Shown here: piece by piece, positions 5,382 through 12,489 of the stretch
Layout: every line of letters begins with the position of its first letter
How positions within the stretch are numbered: the stretch's first letter is position 1
Assembly (NCBI GenBank): GCA_951828515.1
Contig: OX639992.1
Coordinates: forward strand, 620,001 to 684,000
Length of the DNA stretch: 64,000 nt
Source of the DNA: an uncultured Poribacteria bacterium
GTDB taxonomy: Bacteria; Poribacteria; WGA-4E; WGA-3G
Reading direction: 5' to 3'
Position numbers and translations under genes: made by a program
The notes under the pieces: model-generated
The model's input: the letters and a program-made list of their open reading frames with translations, nothing else
Databases searched by the model: none
Told to the model about the DNA's origin: nothing

Positions 5382-6137
5382 TTACCTGATACCTGCCTTT
5401 AGTTTTCCCCACGTTGCGGTAAGTTTTCCGCGTGCTTCCACATCTTGCGGGGTTTCCATGACTTTTTGGATGTCGTCTTCGCTTAAGGTTTTCTCATAGA
5501 GTCTGACTTCATCAATTTTACCGGGGAAGTGGTCAGTGGCGTTGCCGAGATCATCGCCGCCAATCCAGAGTTCTAAACCGGACGGAGCGATTGGGACATC
5601 GTTGGCAGCGTCGCCTTCGAGTTCACCGTTTATGTAGACCTTCAATGTTTTTCCATCGAACGTCCCTGCGAAGTGATACCATTCGCCGACTTTCCAATCG
5701 GTTGTTGTGGATTGTGCAAAGGCGTTGTTGGGTTTGACGAGAAAGTCGATGCTGTCTGCGTTGCCGAAGTCGAAGATGACGAAGATGGAGTTATTTTTAC
5801 TCATTAATCGGTGACCGGTGAGATCATCGTTTGGACTGAACCACGCCATGAGGGTAATATTTTCCTCGATTGCGAGGGCGGGATCGTCTGCGACGATGAC
5901 ATGATCGTCTACACCGTTAAATTCGAGTGCGGTGCCGAATTTGCCTTCAACCCACTTCGGCTTACCGTTAAACTCGCCATCGAGTCCGTTGCCTGTGACA
6001 TCTATGGCTTCTTTACCCTTGCCTTCATCAAAGGGCCAGTAGGCGACGAGACCATCTTCTGCGACGTTGGCGATACTGAGATTGGTAATAATGAGGAGTG
6101 AGAATAGCAGCGACAATACAAAGATAACTTTGGGCAT
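5382..6137 (-). CDS. Secreted LamG / concanavalin A-like lectin domain protein
   Basis: 251 residues. Residues 1-22 form a signal peptide (MPKVIFVLSLLFSLLIITNLSIANVA). The rest is one LamG-like jelly-roll domain: LVAYWPFDEGKGKEAIDVTG, KFGTALEFNGVDDHV, the central TLMAWFSPND, and the C-terminal YINGELEG, LWIGGDD and KIDEVRLYEKTLSEDDI. These motifs match the widespread three-to-laminin-G fold that binds sugars or other surface ligands. It ends shortly after the domain, in a short tail TATWGKLKAGIR, and no enzyme domain is attached. AGGAGA lies 7 nt before ATG at 6137; an upstream in-frame start has none. It is expected in the periplasm or on the outer surface. Confidence 0.85.
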   Translation of the reverse strand: MPKVIFVLSLLFSLLIITNLSIANVAEDGLVAYWPFDEGKGKEAIDVTGNGLDGEFNGKPKWVEGKFGTALEFNGVDDHVIVADDPALAIEENITLMAWFSPNDDLTGHRLMSKNNSIFVIFDFGNADSIDFLVKPNNAFAQSTTTDWKVGEWYHFAGTFDGKTLKVYINGELEGDAANDVPIAPSGLELWIGGDDLGNATDHFPGKIDEVRLYEKTLSEDDIQKVMETPQDVEARGKLTATWGKLKAGIR

Positions 6138-6227
6138 GGCAATTTCTCCTATGCAAAGTTTTGGATTTGTATCTTTAGAGTATGTCACTATTATAACATA
6201 TTTTTGAAAAAGATGTATAAAAAAAAA

Positions 6228-6254
6228 TGTCTGAATCAGGATTTACAGGATTTT
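6228..6254. repeat. TGTCTGAATCAGGATT short interspersed repeat
   Basis: TGTCTGAATCAGGATTTACA followed by GGATT. Near-identical copies are at 41962-41986 and 39253-39276. All three lie at or just outside gene ends. The present copy is next to the 3' end of the decayed gene at 6236-7151. Confidence 0.7.
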
Positions 6255-7151
6255 AAGATAGGCAGGATAGGGGATGTGTTAATTGTCTGAATGCACGTCG
6301 CATTTGGGCGAGTACGCCGCAAATCGCGGATTATCACAGCAGTAGTTCCCACAATGCCAGCACCTAATGAACCCACAATCCCTCCAATCAGTCCACCAGC
6401 CACAGTACCAATGCCGGGAAATATACTTCCGACTGCTGCACCGCCAATCCATCCCGCGGTGCCTGTCACAACACAAGCGGTGTTAATTGTGCTATTTTTT
6501 GCGAACTGTTGCCATGAAATTGAACGTTTGAAAACGGCTCGGTAGAAATCGGGTGTGCTTGTCACGACTGCCGCGACTGCCGCTGTAATGGCATTCGTGC
6601 GAAGTAGTCTTGATACATGGTTAACAGCAGCCGCGCCAGCGACTGTGTGCAAAGGTTACTGCAAATGAAACTGGAAACACAGATATTGAGGTCACAATCT
6701 GCGTTTTGGCATCAAAGATAAGGGAATCAATATTTCCGGCGCGTGCGATATTCTTCGCTTGTTGGTAGGTCACCGAACCTTAACGGACCATTTTCTCTGC
6801 ATCCGCAGGATTCTTAATGCCTGGGACCTTGTCTTGCTCAATCCGCTTACGCATGAATTTCACGCAATCTTCCCACTGATTCTTCGGGACTTCAAGAACT
6901 TGCCCCTCATAACGATAGTATCCAGAACTTGAATCAAACGCAGCAGCAACAGTTTCAGATGCACTCCGATAATACTTGGATTGGAGAAACACCCCATTGA
7001 CAACTCGATCTGGACCGTTCAATTCGTTGGAAATTCCTATTACCTTGGCTATTTTACCTTGGAGTTTGTCATTCAAATTATTCGCATCCTCCGCTGCAAG
7101 ACCCTGTCCGCCTGGTAAAGGATATCTTAAGATTTGTGTTTGTTCCAACAT
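6236..7151 (-). pseudogene. Decayed gene for a protein with a glycine-rich C-terminal membrane domain
   Basis: The 5' part (7151 to 6780) encodes MLEQTQILRYPLPGG, then NGPDRVVNGVFLQSKYYRSA and VPGIKNPADAEKMVR, then TAA. The same frame continues past the stop with good protein sequence (GSVTYQQAKNIARAGNIDS) to a second stop near 6652. Another frame then carries NHVSRLLRTNAITAAVAAVV and the glycine-rich stretch GTAGWIGGAAVGSIFPGIG (6600-6310). I remember this order of motifs from one continuous, much longer family of unnamed bacterial proteins in which the two parts are joined. The gene therefore appears to carry a nonsense codon and an internal deletion with frameshift, and its 3' end runs into repeat DNA at 6289-6322. 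AAGGGAAT precedes the first ATG. No function is known to me. Confidence 0.65.
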
Positions 7152-7323
7152 TAAGCCTATTCCCTTTTTAATCGAGTTAAGTTTAGAAACGCCTACTCAT
7201 ATTTAAACACATATTCATGGCAAAACCTCAAATAAATTAGGATTTACGCAGTTGGATCATGAATCCATCCGTCGCCTGCGCGGGGTATAGGGCTGGGATT
7301 TATGGGTTAAATCAGGACATCTG

Positions 7324-9033
7324 TCAACGTTGATGTTCCGCATAAACAGGTTTTAAGAAGTCAACTCCGGCTTCTCCGAACCGGTTGCAGATTGCGTCGG
7401 CAATATCTTTATACCCCTTTTTGTATAGAATTCGGATAGTTTCTTCAACTTCGTCCTTTTGCGTCTGTCCCAAGAACCACATTTCACCCTCAGGAATTTC
7501 CAAATAAATTTCCCCAACTTTCTCGGGTGTTATCAAGACATGCTTCTGCAAGGCTTTAATAACGTTTGATAAGGTAAGAGCATATCCTGGAACTTTGTCA
7601 AGATAGTTTATGGATACTTTTATCCACGCGAGCACTTCATCATCTATCTCATCAATGAGTCCTATCCATTGGGACAACGGACTTAGAACCTCTTGATATT
7701 TCGCTTCATCACTATGTTGGAAAAGGACTTCAAACAAAGCACGCCACGCTGGTATAACTTTTACTTTCACTTTGTCAGATAGACTATCAGCGCGTCGGGC
7801 GAAAAAGTAAACCATACCCGCAAGCAGATTTGGATTGCCACTGTGTATCAACTGATAAATGAGGCTGGTTTTGTCATCTAAGGTCTCGCTGTCTTCTATC
7901 CAACCTGTACAGATGTGTTTGACGAGTCCTTCCAGTACTTCCATATCAGTAAAGTGGGTGCTCAATGCTTTCCGATAGTGTCCGTGTGCTTTGAGCAGCA
8001 AGTAAAACTCTTCACGAACCCTTGGGTATAACAAATACCCAGAAAAAGCGGCTTGCCAATAGTCTTCATCCTGCTGTGGAAAGATGAGATTTATGTTGAG
8101 GCGAACCCACTCTTCATCAAGATATGACAAATAACGTAGATGAAATCCAAGCGTATAGGAGAATTCAAGCGAGGGTTCAACACTTCGATCTAATCTTTTG
8201 GTGAAATCCGCTCTGACAGCGTAGGGCCATCGGCAATCTGTGTACTCAAACTTGCTGGTACGAGCGAATCGCAAGGCGTAGTCTATCATCGCCGAAAAGA
8301 CTCTACCTCTATCTGAATTCAGAACATCAGTAGGAAGATTATCAAGGGTTGAAACGCTCTGTTGTGCCTTATCTACGAGAATCAAGAGAAGCTCTTCAGC
8401 AAGAGGTAAGAGTTGCGCGTCAAACGCATGTGTATCATCTTTTGTGCCTTCTGAGATCAAATCTGCTGTAGCAGAAAGCACCCAATTTCTATAGTTAAAT
8501 CCCTCCTCGTGCTGCGCAATCCAAAACTGTTCTAATGAGAGGATATGATATATGAATTTGAGCAATGCTGCCCAATTAAATTCCTTCTTATCGCGCCATG
8601 CAGTGAGGAAGCCTTGTAAGAGGGCAGATTGGTACAGATTCCGAACATCTTGGAAAGGTAGTAGGTTATCCGTGAACCGCTGCGGGTTCGCTGCCACATA
8701 TCCCGAAAGTGTATCTGCAAGTCCACGCCCTTCCAAGATAGGCAATCCGATATCTTCTTCCTTGTACCCCTCTAAATAAGCGACGATCTCAACATTTGAC
8801 ATCGCCGAGAGTTCTTTAGTTGACACAGGACGCACGGGACCAATCGCGCCTGACTTTGGCATAGTTGCGGCGTTTTCACTATTCGCAACTGCAACATTTG
8901 CCGCATGGAGTCGCTCGTATTTTTGATAGGCGGCGGTAACCTTTTCATTACCAGTTTCCAAGAGTAGAGAGAGCCATTTCCGCCGTCTCTCAACAACAAC
9001 TCTTGAGGTTAGTGCTGCGTCAATTCTATCCAT
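7324..9033 (-). CDS. Large helical protein of unknown function, downstream partner
   Basis: 569 residues, mostly alpha-helical by composition, with no signal peptide, no membrane segment and no nucleotide-binding motif. The N-terminal stretch RVVVERRRKWLSLLLETGN followed by VTAAYQKYERLH, and later VSTKELSAMSNVEIVAYLEG and GRGLADTLSGYVAANPQRF, resemble C-terminal repeat regions of large bacterial proteins that I recall near phage-defence STAND ATPases. This is memory, not a search. Its start overlaps the end of the upstream gene by 25 nt in the -1 frame. GGAG lies 11 nt before the ATG, so translation probably depends on coupling, unless the two are really one interrupted gene. A function cannot be assigned. 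Confidence 0.7.
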   Translation of the reverse strand: MDRIDAALTSRVVVERRRKWLSLLLETGNEKVTAAYQKYERLHAANVAVANSENAATMPKSGAIGPVRPVSTKELSAMSNVEIVAYLEGYKEEDIGLPILEGRGLADTLSGYVAANPQRFTDNLLPFQDVRNLYQSALLQGFLTAWRDKKEFNWAALLKFIYHILSLEQFWIAQHEEGFNYRNWVLSATADLISEGTKDDTHAFDAQLLPLAEELLLILVDKAQQSVSTLDNLPTDVLNSDRGRVFSAMIDYALRFARTSKFEYTDCRWPYAVRADFTKRLDRSVEPSLEFSYTLGFHLRYLSYLDEEWVRLNINLIFPQQDEDYWQAAFSGYLLYPRVREEFYLLLKAHGHYRKALSTHFTDMEVLEGLVKHICTGWIEDSETLDDKTSLIYQLIHSGNPNLLAGMVYFFARRADSLSDKVKVKVIPAWRALFEVLFQHSDEAKYQEVLSPLSQWIGLIDEIDDEVLAWIKVSINYLDKVPGYALTLSNVIKALQKHVLITPEKVGEIYLEIPEGEMWFLGQTQKDEVEETIRILYKKGYKDIADAICNRFGEAGVDFLKPVYAEHQR

Positions 9034-10646
9034 CGTAATATCTGCTCCATTTCGTCTTCATCAAAGGTGTGGTTATAGGTTTCAAGCAATTCGGTAATCT
9101 CGGGTTCAAGCCTAATATCATCGAATGGATTGTCTTGCCATGTCCAAAACAGATGCTTCAGATCGTTGTAATGGTCGGTAATTGCCTTGAATGCAATCCG
9201 CCTGATAATAGCGATCGGATCCTGTAGCAGAGACTGGATTGTTCGCTCTATGCTATCAGGTTTCGCATACCGAAAGACAGAACTCGTAAAACTCACCATT
9301 AATTCGGCATAATTTGGGTGTGAAAGGAGCGAGAGATCGCTTTCAACGCGTTCTATAAAATCAAGTATAAATCTGTTCGCAACTGCAATTGCCCTGATTT
9401 TTTCTAGTGCCATCTGTGCTGCCTCAATGCCACATACATTCGTGATGGCGTGCCCATGTTTTTTGAGTGCGTCCTCAATCCAATAATCGTTCATTAAGGT
9501 TCGGATGTCTGGCTCAACCGATTCAACTTCAATCATTATTGTGAGTAGGGCAAGGGTTAGTTCCCGCTTACCACCATCGAGAAGTTTAGGTAGTATTGTT
9601 TGACCTATTTCCTGATCCATCAGGCCGTATTTCTGGATGGATTTCAATGCAGCTGCCATAAAAGTGATATGCTGAGGTTCTATCCGGTCTACAGGAAGTG
9701 TGCCAATAATTTTGACAGTATCTAGATCTGTCCGTCCATTATCAATCCGCTCTCTGCTTTCATCTGTAATGGCATTGACAATGTCCACAAGGATATCAAT
9801 AGAACACTCTGGGTGAGTAGAAACCTTCACCACATACTCCAAGGCATGCCAACGGGAACTATAGTAATATCCGGGCTGATCCGAAGATTCTTGAGGCATG
9901 GGATTCCGATCAGGATCGAACCATCCATCCTCTTTTAAGGGTTCTAACCATGCTGGAGATTCAAGTCTGCTAAAAAAATATGCGCGCCTTGCTTCCACCC
10001 CTAATAGGTTCTGCAAAGTTCCTCTTATTTCGTTTGTTGGTTCCTCATATTCAAGAATTCGATCTAACCTATTAAGGAGATTAAGAGAACTTCCGACTAA
10101 AACTTCCAATATACTCTCGAATTCGTACCAAAAATTCTCGACTTCTTCTCTGGCGCGGGGGGACTTCCATACCCCATGGCGATGGACAAACTTAGGAAAT
10201 TGGGGAGAAACGTTTATCCATCTGGTAGCAAAATTTACTCGGACATCGTCAGGAAGAAACATGCCCACATCCTCAATACCGAGTGCTGCAAGAATCGAAG
10301 CGATGTGACCTCTACGCTCTTTCAGTTCGCTAGGATCTCCAAACTTAGCCAAAACCTCCGTAGTGAGTTGCTTCTGTATGTTCTTTTTAACTTCGTCACT
10401 GGATAGAATATCGCGCAATCCACCATCAATTTCCCGGGCAACATGTGCTAAAAGGTACGCCGCGGTTTGCAGATTATCATCTTGTAAGATTTTGAGTCCA
10501 TCGAGATAGAAAGCCGCTATTTCTTCTCCAATATCTTTCAATCCTTGGTAAATTGCACGTTGCCGAGCGTTTAATTCCGGTCCACGACCCGCCATCTCAC
10601 TCGATGGCTGCGATGAGTCCCGTTCATCGTCAAACCCATCGTTCAT
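9009..10646 (-). CDS. Large helical protein of unknown function, upstream partner
   Basis: 545 residues, soluble and helical. It begins with an acidic, low-complexity leader, then LNARQRAIYQGLKDIGEEIA, LLAHVAREIDGGLRDIL at about 65-81 and WINVSPQFPKFVHRHG at about 147-162. Repeated helical pairs of HEAT/ARM type are likely in the C-terminal half (LLQDPIAIIRRIAFKAITDH). It ends FDEDEMEQILRWIELTQH. The neighbour at 7324-9033 starts inside this end. Both share the same style and lie alone between a decayed gene and a long non-coding stretch, so they most likely form one two-gene unit. There is no ATPase domain in either. The ribosome site before the ATG is weak. Confidence 0.72.
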   Translation of the reverse strand: MNDGFDDERDSSQPSSEMAGRGPELNARQRAIYQGLKDIGEEIAAFYLDGLKILQDDNLQTAAYLLAHVAREIDGGLRDILSSDEVKKNIQKQLTTEVLAKFGDPSELKERRGHIASILAALGIEDVGMFLPDDVRVNFATRWINVSPQFPKFVHRHGVWKSPRAREEVENFWYEFESILEVLVGSSLNLLNRLDRILEYEEPTNEIRGTLQNLLGVEARRAYFFSRLESPAWLEPLKEDGWFDPDRNPMPQESSDQPGYYYSSRWHALEYVVKVSTHPECSIDILVDIVNAITDESRERIDNGRTDLDTVKIIGTLPVDRIEPQHITFMAAALKSIQKYGLMDQEIGQTILPKLLDGGKRELTLALLTIMIEVESVEPDIRTLMNDYWIEDALKKHGHAITNVCGIEAAQMALEKIRAIAVANRFILDFIERVESDLSLLSHPNYAELMVSFTSSVFRYAKPDSIERTIQSLLQDPIAIIRRIAFKAITDHYNDLKHLFWTWQDNPFDDIRLEPEITELLETYNHTFDEDEMEQILRWIELTQH

Positions 10647-10720
10647 TCTTACTTCACATCCTTCGCACTAAATTCAATAATCATATATTAACATATTCCA
10701 AGGTGAAGGTCAAGTCATTT

Positions 10721-10735
10721 CGGCCGATCCGGCCG
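10721..10735. repeat. CGGCC palindrome upstream of the two-gene unit
   Basis: CGGCC-GATCC-GGCCG forms a perfect 5-bp inverted repeat 75 nt upstream of the 10646 start. It could be an operator or simply a small hairpin. The rest of 10647-10891 shows no gene. Confidence 0.35.
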
Positions 10736-10891
10736 GGGCACTTAGTTTTAAATAATTGCTTTGCATCCGTGAACACTTGTTACGGGATACGTCCTGATTT
10801 TTCGCACAACATGGCATAAAAACTTAATATCTGTAAATCAAAACAAGGAACGGTCCCGAAAATTAAATAGTCCGATAATCCGATCCGGTTC

Positions 10892-10920
10892 TTGATAGTT
10901 TCGACATAATATGATATGAT
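10892..10920 (+). promoter_or_regulatory. Candidate sigma-70 promoter for the lipoprotein gene
   Basis: TTGATA (10892-10897), a 17-nt spacer, and TATGAT (10915-10920) lie about 135 nt before the lipoprotein start. The sequence between holds no obvious gene. The match is decent but AT-rich intergenic DNA gives chance hits. Confidence 0.4.
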
Positions 10921-11056
10921 TTTCGTAATAAACTGCAATGGTGCCCGATTAGAGGGTTTCGATCTTCTATAGCATCATTATTTTTTTAACCTTCTCTTGT
11001 CAAAGCCTTTTTGGTGTTAAAAAGGTAGTTTACTAACCGCTGGGGGTATGTTTCCA

Positions 11057-11608
11057 ATGAAATTTTTTAGTAAAATTATGGTATTTGTTCTGTTCGCGTT
11101 GGAAGTAGGTATACTGCACGGTTGCGAATCAGAACCACAGAGCGTACGACCGACTGTGAGCGCGACAGAATTGATGTCTCATTATATGAAAGATGCACGT
11201 CACGCCGACGAAATCTATGCAAGATCGTGGAATTTCTTCACAGTAACAGGGACTATAAAACAACACCATAAGGAAGAATCGGATAACTATGTCAACCAAT
11301 TTCATCATTCCATTTGGCTATATGTTGATAACTCGAAACTTTATTCGGGGGACAACAGTAATCCTTCTGCTGAAGTCCTTTGTCAATTCAACCTTATGCC
11401 AGCGGTGCATCCACTGAATAATCTCAACATGGGTGATTTTGTAAAAATACGAGGATATGTGAAACAACAGGTGCCCCAATTCGGCATAGTAGATTACATG
11501 AAATTGCCGGATGCAAAGTTAGGGGGATTGCGCAAAGGCACCTATACAAATACAGGTAAAAATTATTTTTACGTAATTCTTGGACAATGCAGTTTAGTGG
11601 GTAATTGA
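11057..11608 (+). CDS. Lipoprotein with an OB-fold (tRNA_anti-like) domain
   Basis: 183 residues from the ATG at 11057, with GGGGGT 9 nt upstream; an ATG three codons earlier is also possible. The signal ends in the lipobox ILHGC, which puts the lipidated cysteine at residue 23. The mature part has SATELMSHYMKDARHADEIY then FFTVTGTIKQ, a layout typical of the small periplasmic OB-fold family called tRNA_anti-like, and continues with strands such as FVKIRGYVKQ. It is predicted to sit on a membrane facing the periplasm; the ligand is unknown. It stands alone between divergent and convergent neighbours. Confidence 0.7.
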   Translation: MKFFSKIMVFVLFALEVGILHGCESEPQSVRPTVSATELMSHYMKDARHADEIYARSWNFFTVTGTIKQHHKEESDNYVNQFHHSIWLYVDNSKLYSGDNSNPSAEVLCQFNLMPAVHPLNNLNMGDFVKIRGYVKQQVPQFGIVDYMKLPDAKLGGLRKGTYTNTGKNYFYVILGQCSLVGN

Positions 11609-11835
11609 TAGTCTGTTGAACTTATACCAAAACTAAGGAAAAGATAAAGTTTTCACCTACGGGCGATTTAGTTTTCTGATGAGACCCCCATAGCAGGAAC
11701 TTGAAACCTTAACCTATTGTCCTACCAATCCTGTTAATTTTGTTTCAAACATAAAAAATTGAATGACCAAACCTTTCCCAGAAGTATTAGCCTGTCTCAG
11801 TTGCGAAATTGCTTACATCACTAAAACTGCAACAC

Positions 11836-12489
11836 TTATTCAGCACGCTCAATTGACCAGTGTCGATCTGTGCTTTGGACGACGGTGGCACCCGGCATGT
11901 CCATCTGTGTTAGCATCTCGTTGACTTCGGCAATGGTGAACGCGGCGAGGAAGGAGTCGTAGTATAACTTCTGCTGATAAGGGGTGTCATCCGCGGCATA
12001 CAGATCCACAAAGGCTTGCGCGTCCGCTGGTGTTTCGGGACGGATGAGGTCGCGGATGAGAATCGTTCCTTTGGGACGGGCAACTCTGCCCATCTCTTTG
12101 AGTGCGGACATCGCATCGTGGATGTGATGGACAATACTGTTGGAGATAAGTCCGTCAAAGGTGTTATCGGCGTAGGGTAGGGTTTTGGCATCAACGAGTT
12201 CGAGGGTTATCCGATCGGTGAGACCGGCATCCGCGACGTGCCGTTTCGCTATCTTTAACATTTCTTCGGAGAGATCAATGGCGGTAATGCGGATATCGGG
12301 ACAGTGTTGCGCGAGTAGGATAGGAATCTGTGCGGGACCCGTGCCGACATCGAGAAGATGTCCGGTACTGGCACCGAGAGCGACAACACGATCGACGAAA
12401 GCGCGGTCAACCTCACCGTGCTCCATCGCATCGTAGGCTTCGGCGGCTTCCGCTGTGTCCATAACTTCGGGTTCTACAATTCGTCTCAT
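11836..12489 (-). CDS. Class I SAM-dependent methyltransferase
   Basis: 217 residues. The Rossmann SAM site is LLDVGTGPAQIPILLA (45-60), followed by the acidic motif II TAIDLSEEMLKIAKR at about 76-90, TLELVDAKTLPYADNTFDGL and the post-motif SNSIVHHIHD. This pattern belongs to the Methyltransf_11/25 type that acts on small molecules, quinones or lipids. The substrate is not evident. Only a weak purine-rich site precedes the ATG. It is isolated from the next same-strand gene by 85 nt. Confidence 0.88.
   Translation of the reverse strand: MRRIVEPEVMDTAEAAEAYDAMEHGEVDRAFVDRVVALGASTGHLLDVGTGPAQIPILLAQHCPDIRITAIDLSEEMLKIAKRHVADAGLTDRITLELVDAKTLPYADNTFDGLISNSIVHHIHDAMSALKEMGRVARPKGTILIRDLIRPETPADAQAFVDLYAADDTPYQQKLYYDSFLAAFTIAEVNEMLTQMDMPGATVVQSTDRHWSIERAE

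What the first reader, a model, noticed from the sequence alone, without database searches (positions are those of the whole stretch)
7324..10646. Two large overlapping helical genes that may be one interrupted protein or a two-subunit system
The genes overlap by 25 nt in the -1 frame. The end ILRWIELTQH and the start region RVVVERRRKWLSLLLETGN look like neighbouring parts of one repeat region I recall from very large, phage-defence-related proteins. No slippery heptamer is visible in the overlap. No ATPase or nuclease motif is seen, so the function is open.
Basis: inference. Interest (0 to 1): 0.5.

Follow-up and report, generated by a model that had tools for sequence, protein, structure and literature searches.

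The report
Two-subunit DSR1-like sensor without SIR2
In a sponge-associated bacterium, a long helical protein related to the sensor part of a known anti-virus protein is made from two overlapping genes instead of one, and a different front domain replaces the usual NAD-destroying enzyme.

Summary
In detail: minus-strand genes 10646-9009 (545 aa, H1) and 9033-7324 (569 aa, H2) overlap by 25 nt with no slippery site. They are two parts of one family: PADLOC's Dsr1 profile matches H1 at 296-664 and H2 at 684-1224, and the same genome has a one-gene paralogue. It is not an interrupted gene. In 20 split junctions from 20 genomes of the phylum the start is ATG in 20, the overlap 25 nt in 19, and GGAG lies upstream in 18; 11 one-gene relatives have none of these. 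Both halves are under purifying selection, and the cut lies in an inter-helix loop of an all-helical model. DSR1's SIR2 domain is absent; its slot holds a helical domain distantly related to Pfam's 'predicted pPIWI-associating nuclease'. Relatives lie beside restriction-modification, PIN or SIR2 genes, which points to phage defence (inferred, not shown). Best reading: an old gene fission made a translationally coupled two-subunit DSR1-like sensor with a replaced effector.

The parts
9009..10646 (-). H1, 545 aa: N-terminal helical domain plus first half of the DSR1-type helical body
   Evidence: ORF; Dsr1 296-664, E 1.5e-74; model mean pLDDT 79.8, residues 186-545 aligned with ARM/HEAT-like chains
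10077..10583 (-). N-terminal helical domain of H1 (about residues 22-190, limits by eye), in the place of the SIR2 domain of DSR1; Y47, H68, R71, E72, W143, H155 shared with relatives
   Evidence: hhalign to a separate 233-aa gene E 7.5e-5; no similarity to the SIR2 part of L089
9012..10076 (-). First half of the DSR1-type body (H1 residues 191-545)
9045..9048 (-). GGAG Shine-Dalgarno-like motif, first base 15 nt before the H2 start
   Evidence: same position in 18 of 20 split junctions; not in the stretches printed for 11 fused relatives
9009..9033 (-). 25-nt overlap: H2 ATG to H1 TAA, -1 frame
7324..9033 (-). H2, 569 aa: second half of the DSR1-type body
   Evidence: ORF; Dsr1 684-1224, E 3.7e-156
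6338..7172 (-). Broken copy of a downstream neighbour (intact about 459 aa in some relatives; glycine-rich, probably membrane, by eye). Possible companion, membership doubtful
   Evidence: two frames, residues 1-181 and 252-355 of 459; PADLOC PDC-M09B 1.1e-6 for the intact L042 copy

Best explanation
H1 and H2 are the two subunits of a DSR1-like immune protein that came from an old gene fission inside the helical sensor body. Translation of H2 is coupled to H1: ribosomes that end H1 at the TAA restart at the ATG just upstream, helped by the GGAG motif (inferred from anatomy). The two chains then pair end to end and rebuild the long helical body that in DSR1 is one chain (inferred). This body is proposed to recognise a phage component, as the C-terminal domain of DSR2 does (analogy). 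The SIR2 NADase of DSR1 is missing; its slot is filled by a helical domain with conserved Tyr, His, Arg and Glu that is distantly related to Pfam's pP_pnuc_1, a predicted nuclease. I propose that this domain, or an enzyme that it recruits (a PIN gene follows most one-gene relatives), is what the sensor switches on. Shown: the two-part homology, the conserved split, purifying selection, SIR2 absence and the defence-type neighbours of relatives. Supported but remote: the N-domain relationship. Inferred: heterodimer, phage sensing, nuclease or adaptor role.
For: Contiguous Dsr1 profile matches. One-gene paralogue in the same genome, 46% and 52% identical. A full SIR2-DSR1, L089 (Ca. Anammoxibacter, 1230 aa; Dsr1 1592.8 bits, SIR2_2 7e-19), aligns with H1 223-545 (32%) and H2 5-569 (40%). 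Split junctions: ATG 20/20, 25-nt overlap 19/20, GGAG 18/20; fused relatives 0/11 for ATG and GGAG. One split clade in the H2 tree, 19/19, support 1.0. dN/dS medians 0.23 for H1 (78 pairs) and 0.20 for H2 (171 pairs), none >= 1. The joint falls between helices 543-555 and 566-581 of the fused model. pP_pnuc_1 matches occur in 7 of 84 phylum genomes; six lie in the same open frame as a Dsr1 match and the seventh on the same contig in a copy broken into two frames. Defence-type neighbours: type III mod and res around L123 and L157; Eco57I-type R-M gene directly upstream in L054, L056, L144, L145; PIN gene about 20 nt downstream in 10 of 13 fused-type loci and between body and res in L157; separate SIR2 gene before a DSR1 body on a Vibrio plasmid. 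Module shuffling and frequent decay at a variable site.
Against: I found no experiment on a SIR2-less member in the papers seen. The 20 split loci have no match to the PIN genes, I saw no R-M gene beside the window pair by eye, and the genome has no SIR2_2 domain. The window N-domain itself has no Pfam match (only a sub-threshold DUF4209 hit, E 0.2), and its link to pP_pnuc_1 runs through relatives (A5 to L091 E 7.5e-5, probability 62%; A5 to L128 E 0.008, probability 4.9%). pP_pnuc_1 is 'nuclease' by Pfam's name only, and the His of the AHxxRE motif is Gln in one relative (L155). Two genomes keep an intact H2 without a full H1 (L037, L040), which does not fit an obligate pair unless the loss is recent. 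The split clade's support in the H1 tree is only 0.6. The H1-H2 interface was not modelled. Fold matches of the body are within the range common for helical models.
Confidence: 0.58

Rival explanations
1. One protein interrupted in this genome by a frameshift or a sequencing error.
For: One-gene relatives exist and the reading frame changes exactly at the joint. Some other copies at the site are clearly damaged (L036, L053, L060).
Against: ATG, 25-nt overlap and GGAG recur in 20, 19 and 18 of 20 split junctions from 20 genomes; one clade; dN/dS about 0.2 in both halves.
Confidence: 0.03
2. Programmed -1 frameshifting makes a full-length fusion from the two ORFs.
For: H2 is in the -1 frame of H1, and with the H2-frame stop 21-51 nt upstream of the ATG the two frames are open together for about 43-73 nt. 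Recoding and coupling can coexist (PMC3711429, passages seen).
Against: No X_XXY_YYZ heptamer in any of 20 loci. An ATG plus GGAG goes with the split and is conserved, as expected for reinitiation.
Confidence: 0.07
3. A two-subunit helical complex with a housekeeping or symbiosis role unrelated to phage.
For: In the genus the split pair sits at one chromosomal site between the same genes (both flanks seen in 13 of 20 loci), without R-M, SIR2 or PIN genes recognised beside it; ARM/HEAT-like bodies serve many functions.
Against: The site is variable and empty in five genomes, copies decay often, modules shuffle, other cargo there matches a defence candidate (PDC-S37 in L114), and relatives lie in R-M operons or carry SIR2.
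Confidence: 0.25
4. A decaying, functionless remnant of a DSR1-like gene kept by chance.
For: By my tally 9 of 25 copies at the site are degraded or frameshifted (L036, L037, L040, L052, L053, L060, L065, L066, L107), and the neighbour gene is broken in the window.
Against: 13 loci have both halves open over their full compared length, and dN/dS is 0.13-0.32 in every pair compared.
Confidence: 0.04

Closest known systems
DSR1 (defense-associated sirtuin 1; PADLOC PDLC04166)
   Same: Sensor-side region: the profile covers H1 at 296-664 and H2 at 684-1224; 32% and 40% identity to a full SIR2-DSR1, L089.
   Different: No SIR2 domain; two genes with the cut inside the helical body; another helical domain in the SIR2 slot.
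pP_pnuc_1-type domain fused to a DSR1 body (L128, L149, L151, L152, L154, L157; L156 broken)
   Same: Same order, N-domain then DSR1-type body; mostly shared Y / AHxxR[E/D] / W / H pattern.
   Different: One chain of about 1190-1230 aa in six of seven; 3 of 7 matches over the Pfam cut-off, while the window domain has no Pfam match.
Separate N-domain gene plus DSR1 body with 29-nt overlap (L122, L123, L124, L127, L130, L131)
   Same: Two overlapping genes, no SIR2.
   Different: Cut between N-domain and body, not inside the body.
DSR2
   Same: Proposed analogy: a C-terminal domain senses a phage tail tube protein and controls an N-terminal effector (PMC10973363, PMC10981675; abstract starts and passages seen).
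   Different: Single chain with SIR2; no sequence match of H1, H2 or the A3 profile to any solved DSR2 chain listed.
Vibrio coralliilyticus pOCN014 SIR2 gene plus DSR1-body gene
   Same: DSR1 distributed over two adjacent overlapping genes.
   Different: Split between effector and sensor; keeps SIR2.

Membership tests
DSR1 | N-terminal SIR2 domain | tested here: not met
   No Pfam match in H1 or H2, Dsr1 match starts at 296, hhalign of the N-domain to the L089 SIR2 part E 0.57, no SIR2_2 in the genome
DSR1 | DSR1 C-terminal region | tested here: met
   Dsr1 296-664 E 1.5e-74 and 684-1224 E 3.7e-156
DSR1 | Single gene | tested here: not met
   Two ORFs with conserved joint; the paralogue at G000:C1:37835-41221 is single
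DSR1 | NAD+ depletion and phage protection | not testable with these tools
   needs experiments
pP_pnuc_1 (PF18165) | Pfam match of the window protein above the cut-off | tested here: not met
   no match in H1 and no pP_pnuc_1 match in the 12 N-domains of A5; relatives match
pP_pnuc_1 (PF18165) | Homology of the window N-domain to matching domains | tested here: inconclusive
   A5 to L091 E 7.5e-5 (L091 itself matches the family only at E 0.025), A5 to L128 E 0.008; shared residues (partly chosen by motif)
pP_pnuc_1 (PF18165) | Nuclease activity | not testable with these tools
   predicted by the Pfam name only
Programmed -1 frameshift gene | Slippery heptamer at the joint | tested here: not met
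   0 of 20
ARM/HEAT alpha-solenoid | Repeated helix pairs in a solenoid | tested here: inconclusive
   All-helical models; top rows are spliceosome chains, importins, CAND1, PP2A (best Z 13.6, rmsd 8.5, 307 aligned; best Z 11.3, rmsd 14.1, 443 aligned), but the tool notes that helical models commonly reach such values

The most novel reading that the evidence does not exclude
A modular immune receptor in which one DSR1-type helical sensor is combined with interchangeable front modules (SIR2 NADase, pP_pnuc-type domain, an NTPase-like front in an archaeon), fused or as separate overlapping genes. In Poribacteria the sensor has become a two-subunit composite whose parts reassort between lineages, and its R-M-linked relatives may guard restriction enzymes against phage inhibitors, with a PIN RNase as partner. 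The joint in the sensor appears to have been cut twice, once without SIR2 (window clade) and once in a SIR2-bearing DSR1 (L121).
Probability: 0.28. Interest if true: 0.72.

Novelty: new variant of a known kind. Interest (0 to 1): 0.5.

Why it matters
The passages I read do not name a ligand for the DSR1 sensor. A natural form that splits the sensor at a fixed joint gives two separate pieces for mapping which part binds phage and which part relays the signal. The swap of SIR2 for another conserved domain suggests that the DSR1 body is a portable sensor, and that annotation tools that call 'Dsr1' from the profile alone will mislabel SIR2-less systems as NADases.

Tried and rejected
Interruption, sequencing error and pseudogene: rejected by conserved junctions and dN/dS. 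Programmed frameshift: no slippery heptamer in any of 20. A SIR2 gene acting in trans: no SIR2_2 found in the genome. PIN as partner of the window pair: no match to two PIN queries in the window or in the 20 split loci; another PIN-like ORF lies upstream in L040 (by eye), not followed. Relatives in viral contigs: none confirmed in two scans. Phage records: none for the L089 body (the window proteins were not searched there). Plasmids: two records. Sequence matches to solved structures: none below E 0.13 and none for the A3 profile. HEPN for the N-domain: no Pfam HEPN match; I looked for an R-x4-6-H motif by eye and it is not conserved. Avs4 (8dgf, Z 11.1) ranks among unrelated helical chains and is not taken as a relative. 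The viral fold library was not searched.

Rows dropped or chosen: L052 was left out of the junction count because a deletion removes its joint; L060, L065, L066 and L107 are remnants. L061 and L064 are counted as fused-type although partial. The H1 tree and dN/dS used 13 H1 (L042 without its extra N-terminal part); the H2 ones used 19 H2. Synonymous divergence is near saturation (median dS about 1), so dN/dS values are rough. In one search the pP_pnuc-type rows and L091 were picked with the motif AAHxxRE, so that motif is conserved in them by construction; L150 and L128 are the same gene, and L155 was lost by the filter (it reads AAQxxRE). The fused stretches were judged for GGAG by eye; L054 has AGGA there. 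Names of the flanking genes (methyltransferase, aldo/keto-type, LamG, gpmI, prs) were given by eye, from no call.
Full report
What is there. Two minus-strand ORFs lie at 10646-9009 (545 aa, H1) and 9033-7324 (569 aa, H2) and overlap by 25 nt. The window is G000:C1:620001-684000 of a 5.85-Mb single-contig genome. Close relatives are titled Candidatus Poribacteria, so I take the host to be a poribacterium.

One family, two parts. PADLOC's Dsr1 profile (1227 positions) matches H1 at 296-664 (E 1.5e-74) and H2 at 684-1224 (E 3.7e-156); Pfam and NCBIfam give nothing. The genome also holds a one-gene paralogue at G000:C1:37835-41221 with 46% and 52% identity to the two halves in one open frame of 1135 aa. 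In the phylum, 35 of 84 genomes match H2 at E <= 1e-5 and 46 of 84 match the Dsr1 profile at E <= 0.001.

The split is old and kept. I examined the split-type loci whose H2 start was readable: 20 junctions from 20 genomes, window included. The H2 start is ATG in 20 of 20, the overlap 25 nt in 19 of 20 (19 nt in L048), and GGAG begins 15 nt before the start in 18 of 20 (not in L044; in L053 the upstream part is deleted). In 11 fused relatives the homologous stretch has neither that ATG nor GGAG (0 of 11 each, read by eye from the stretches printed; L054 has AGGA there): the residue before the conserved Trp is His, Asn, Asp or a Gln coded CAG, and the helix reads EIE, EID, ELG or EVE instead of EME. 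So the start codon and the ribosome site go with the split state. L052 was left out because a deletion removes its joint. A FastTree of H2 puts all 19 split sequences in one clade (support 1.0) with the fused L025 as sister, rooted on the SIR2-DSR1 L089; the H1 tree also keeps 13 of 13 together, at support 0.6. Since the outgroup and the other branches of these trees are fused, fission is the simpler direction. dN/dS (Nei-Gojobori, own script) has medians 0.23 for H1 (78 pairs) and 0.20 for H2 (171 pairs), range 0.13-0.32, none at or above 1. No slippery heptamer was found in any of 20.

Location (gene names by eye). In 13 of the 20 split loci both flanks are seen and are the same: a methyltransferase and an aldo/keto-type gene upstream, a LamG gene, and in most gpmI and prs, downstream. 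In six more the downstream flank is seen (L035, L044, L046, L047, L050, L053), and L023 is too short. In L044 and L050, from another genus, no match to the methyltransferase lies in the 7-8 kb fetched upstream. In five genomes without the pair the methyltransferase and LamG genes lie 150-690 nt apart with no match to the pair between them (G080, G083, G073, G075, G061). Four others hold a 1068-1280-aa protein and one (G056, L114) a helicase-type protein that matches the defence candidate PDC-S37 at 2000 bits; L053 has a similar 1572-aa protein after its damaged pair (by eye). The pair thus occupies a variable site, as defence cargo often does. By my tally 9 of 25 copies at the site are degraded or frameshifted, 13 are open in both halves, and three are cut by contig ends. 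The parts are mosaic: L049 H1 is 82% identical to L038, but its H2 is 77% identical to L051; the L042 H1 is 35% identical to L038 over the first 200 residues, 53% in the middle, and 78-85% at the H1 end and in H2.

Structure. AlphaFold models of H1 (mean pLDDT 79.8, pTM 0.63) and of the fused relative L084 (1117 aa, 79.8, pTM 0.48) are all-helical. H1 residues 186-545 align with ARM/HEAT chains (best Z 13.6, rmsd 8.5, 307 aligned), and the fused chain from about 199 to 1110 does so too (best Z 11.3, rmsd 14.1, 443 aligned). By the tool's own notes such values are common for helical models, so I call the body solenoid-like and claim no kinship. The fission point falls between helix 543-555 and helix 566-581 of L084, so each half ends at a natural boundary.

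The missing SIR2. A full SIR2-DSR1 exists in L089 (Ca. Anammoxibacter, 1230 aa; SIR2_2 7e-19; Dsr1 1592.8 bits). H1 aligns with it only from residue 223 (32%), H2 from residue 5 (40%). The N-domain profile has no similarity to its SIR2 part, and the genome has no SIR2_2 domain. The replacement is a helical domain. In six loci a 211-218-aa gene of the same kind overlaps a 947-981-aa DSR1 body by 29 nt (ORF ends mechanical), and in L091 a 233-aa gene overlaps a 980-aa body by 4 nt (hhalign to the N-domain profile E 7.5e-5). In L128 the domain is fused to the body and matches Pfam pP_pnuc_1 above its cut-off (28.0 against 26.3 bits). In the 84 phylum genomes 7 have a pP_pnuc_1 match, 3 over the cut-off. 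Six lie in the same open frame as a Dsr1 match (compare). The seventh (G061) lies on the same contig as one, in a copy that is broken into two frames near residue 665-675 of L128. An alignment of 15 rows (14 distinct genes) shares a Tyr, an AHxxR[E/D] motif, a Trp in 14 and a later His; these are Y47, H68, R71, E72, W143 and H155 in H1. Eight of the rows had been picked with that motif, and L155, lost by the filter, has Gln for the first His. The nuclease label is Pfam's prediction. In the passages shown of the PIWI paper PMC3702460 this domain is not described, and a search for the domain's name gave no relevant paper.

Company kept by relatives. A PIN-domain gene starts 19-21 nt after the fused gene in 10 of 13 fused-type loci (not L025, L061, L064) and no match lies in the 20 split loci (PIN_4 1.9e-5 for L054). 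A gene of about 980 aa with an Eco57I match (6.2e-7 for L056) lies directly upstream of the fused gene or its N-domain in L054, L056, L144 and L145; it is intact in L056 and L144, interrupted in L054 and broken in L145. The N-domain gene and body of L123 lie between type III mod and res genes, with mod or res pieces also around L124, L125, L127 and L128. L157 (G014) is a clean case in one row: type III mod, the pP_pnuc-type DSR1 body (1215 aa), a PIN gene (9.4e-6) and res, cut by the end of the fetched stretch. So a PIN gene follows the body in a second branch as well. A SIR2-DSR1 (L126) lies about 0.9 kb from type I R-M genes (HsdM_N, Methylase_S). A Vibrio coralliilyticus plasmid has a SIR2 gene overlapping a DSR1-body gene, and a Natronorubrum plasmid protein has a DSR1-type C-terminal part (8.8e-37) behind a front annotated as ATP-binding, for which Pfam gives only sub-threshold NTPase hits. 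The split pair has instead, in eight of 20 loci, a 459-aa glycine-rich protein downstream: intact in L035, L042, L045 and L051, cut by the contig end in L023, damaged in L046, L047 and the window. The fused L025 has it too, and G053 has it without the pair (L113).

How it most likely works. DSR2 senses phage tail tube protein with its C-terminal domain and switches on SIR2 (PMC10973363, PMC10981675; abstract starts and passages); DSR1 inhibits phage through a SIR2 domain as well (PMC10952713, passages; Garb et al. 2022 recalled, not read). By analogy I propose that H1 and H2 pair through the cut ends to rebuild the sensor, that a phage component binds it, and that the N-domain acts as nuclease or as recruiter of one. 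Coupled translation through the overlap would keep the subunits in step. A survey of frame transitions (PMC3711429, passages) takes conserved nearness of stop and start as a sign of translational coupling; its distance limit was 10 nt (20 nt in one marked case), whereas here the start lies 22 nt before the stop codon. Shown: anatomy, homology, conservation, selection. Inferred: pairing, sensing, effector.

Against this. I saw no experiment on a SIR2-less member. L037 and L040 keep an intact H2 with at most the tail of H1. The window pair has no nuclease or R-M neighbour that I recognised. The N-domain link to pP_pnuc_1 is remote (E 0.008).

Second cut at the same joint. In L121 (G016) a SIR2-DSR1 is in two ORFs of 657 and 561 aa overlapping by 29 nt. 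The cut maps to residues 644-646 of the intact relative L126. The first ORF ends at Dsr1 position 664, as H1 does. It is one genome, and a sequencing error cannot be excluded.

Novelty. Searches with DSR1, SIR2, sirtuin, tail tube, effector domain and DUF4020 terms, Poribacteria defence and split anti-phage genes listed no title or abstract start on a SIR2-less or split DSR1; the lists were capped in part and full texts were not read. I file it as a new variant of a known kind, not as a DSR1 member, because the SIR2 feature was tested and not met.

Noticed in passing
window 6338-7172 (-): Broken two-frame copy of a 459-aa glycine-rich protein that is intact next to the pair in some relatives; weak PADLOC hits PDC-M09B and LeoB for intact copies.
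   Followed up: partly
window 5382-12489 and L102-L114: Variable insertion site between a methyltransferase gene and a LamG gene: empty in five genomes; other cargo is a 1068-1280-aa protein, a PDC-S37-like protein, or the glycine-rich protein alone.
   Followed up: partly
L038 10976-11116, L040 9722-9850, L051 7862-7990, L109, L112, L114, L116: A second partial copy of the methyltransferase 3' end (about residues 160-216) lies at these sites, as if inserts land there and duplicate it.
   Followed up: no
L005, L032, L054-L059, L062, L063; L157 1144-1614: A PIN-domain gene directly follows the one-gene N-domain/DSR1 relative in 10 of 13 fused-type loci, and the pP_pnuc-type body in L157.
   Followed up: partly
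L123 2742-11118; L157 2-7186: SIR2-less DSR1 bodies with their N-domains embedded between type III mod and res genes.
   Followed up: partly
L121 4158-7788: SIR2-DSR1 in two overlapping ORFs cut at the same joint as the window pair.
   Followed up: partly
L156 2-3434: pP_pnuc-type DSR1 relative of G061 in two frames with a long overlap; broken copy or another split.
   Followed up: partly
L042 11788-13788, L145 3692-4684, L146 41-952: H1-type genes with a duplicated N-domain.
   Followed up: no
L101 3475-8007: Natronorubrum bangense plasmid protein (1510 aa) annotated as ATP-binding, with a DSR1-type C-terminal part (Dsr1 417-1213, 8.8e-37).
   Followed up: no
L100 5034-8775: Vibrio coralliilyticus plasmid pOCN014: SIR2 gene overlapping a DSR1-body gene, that is DSR1 split between effector and sensor.
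   Followed up: partly
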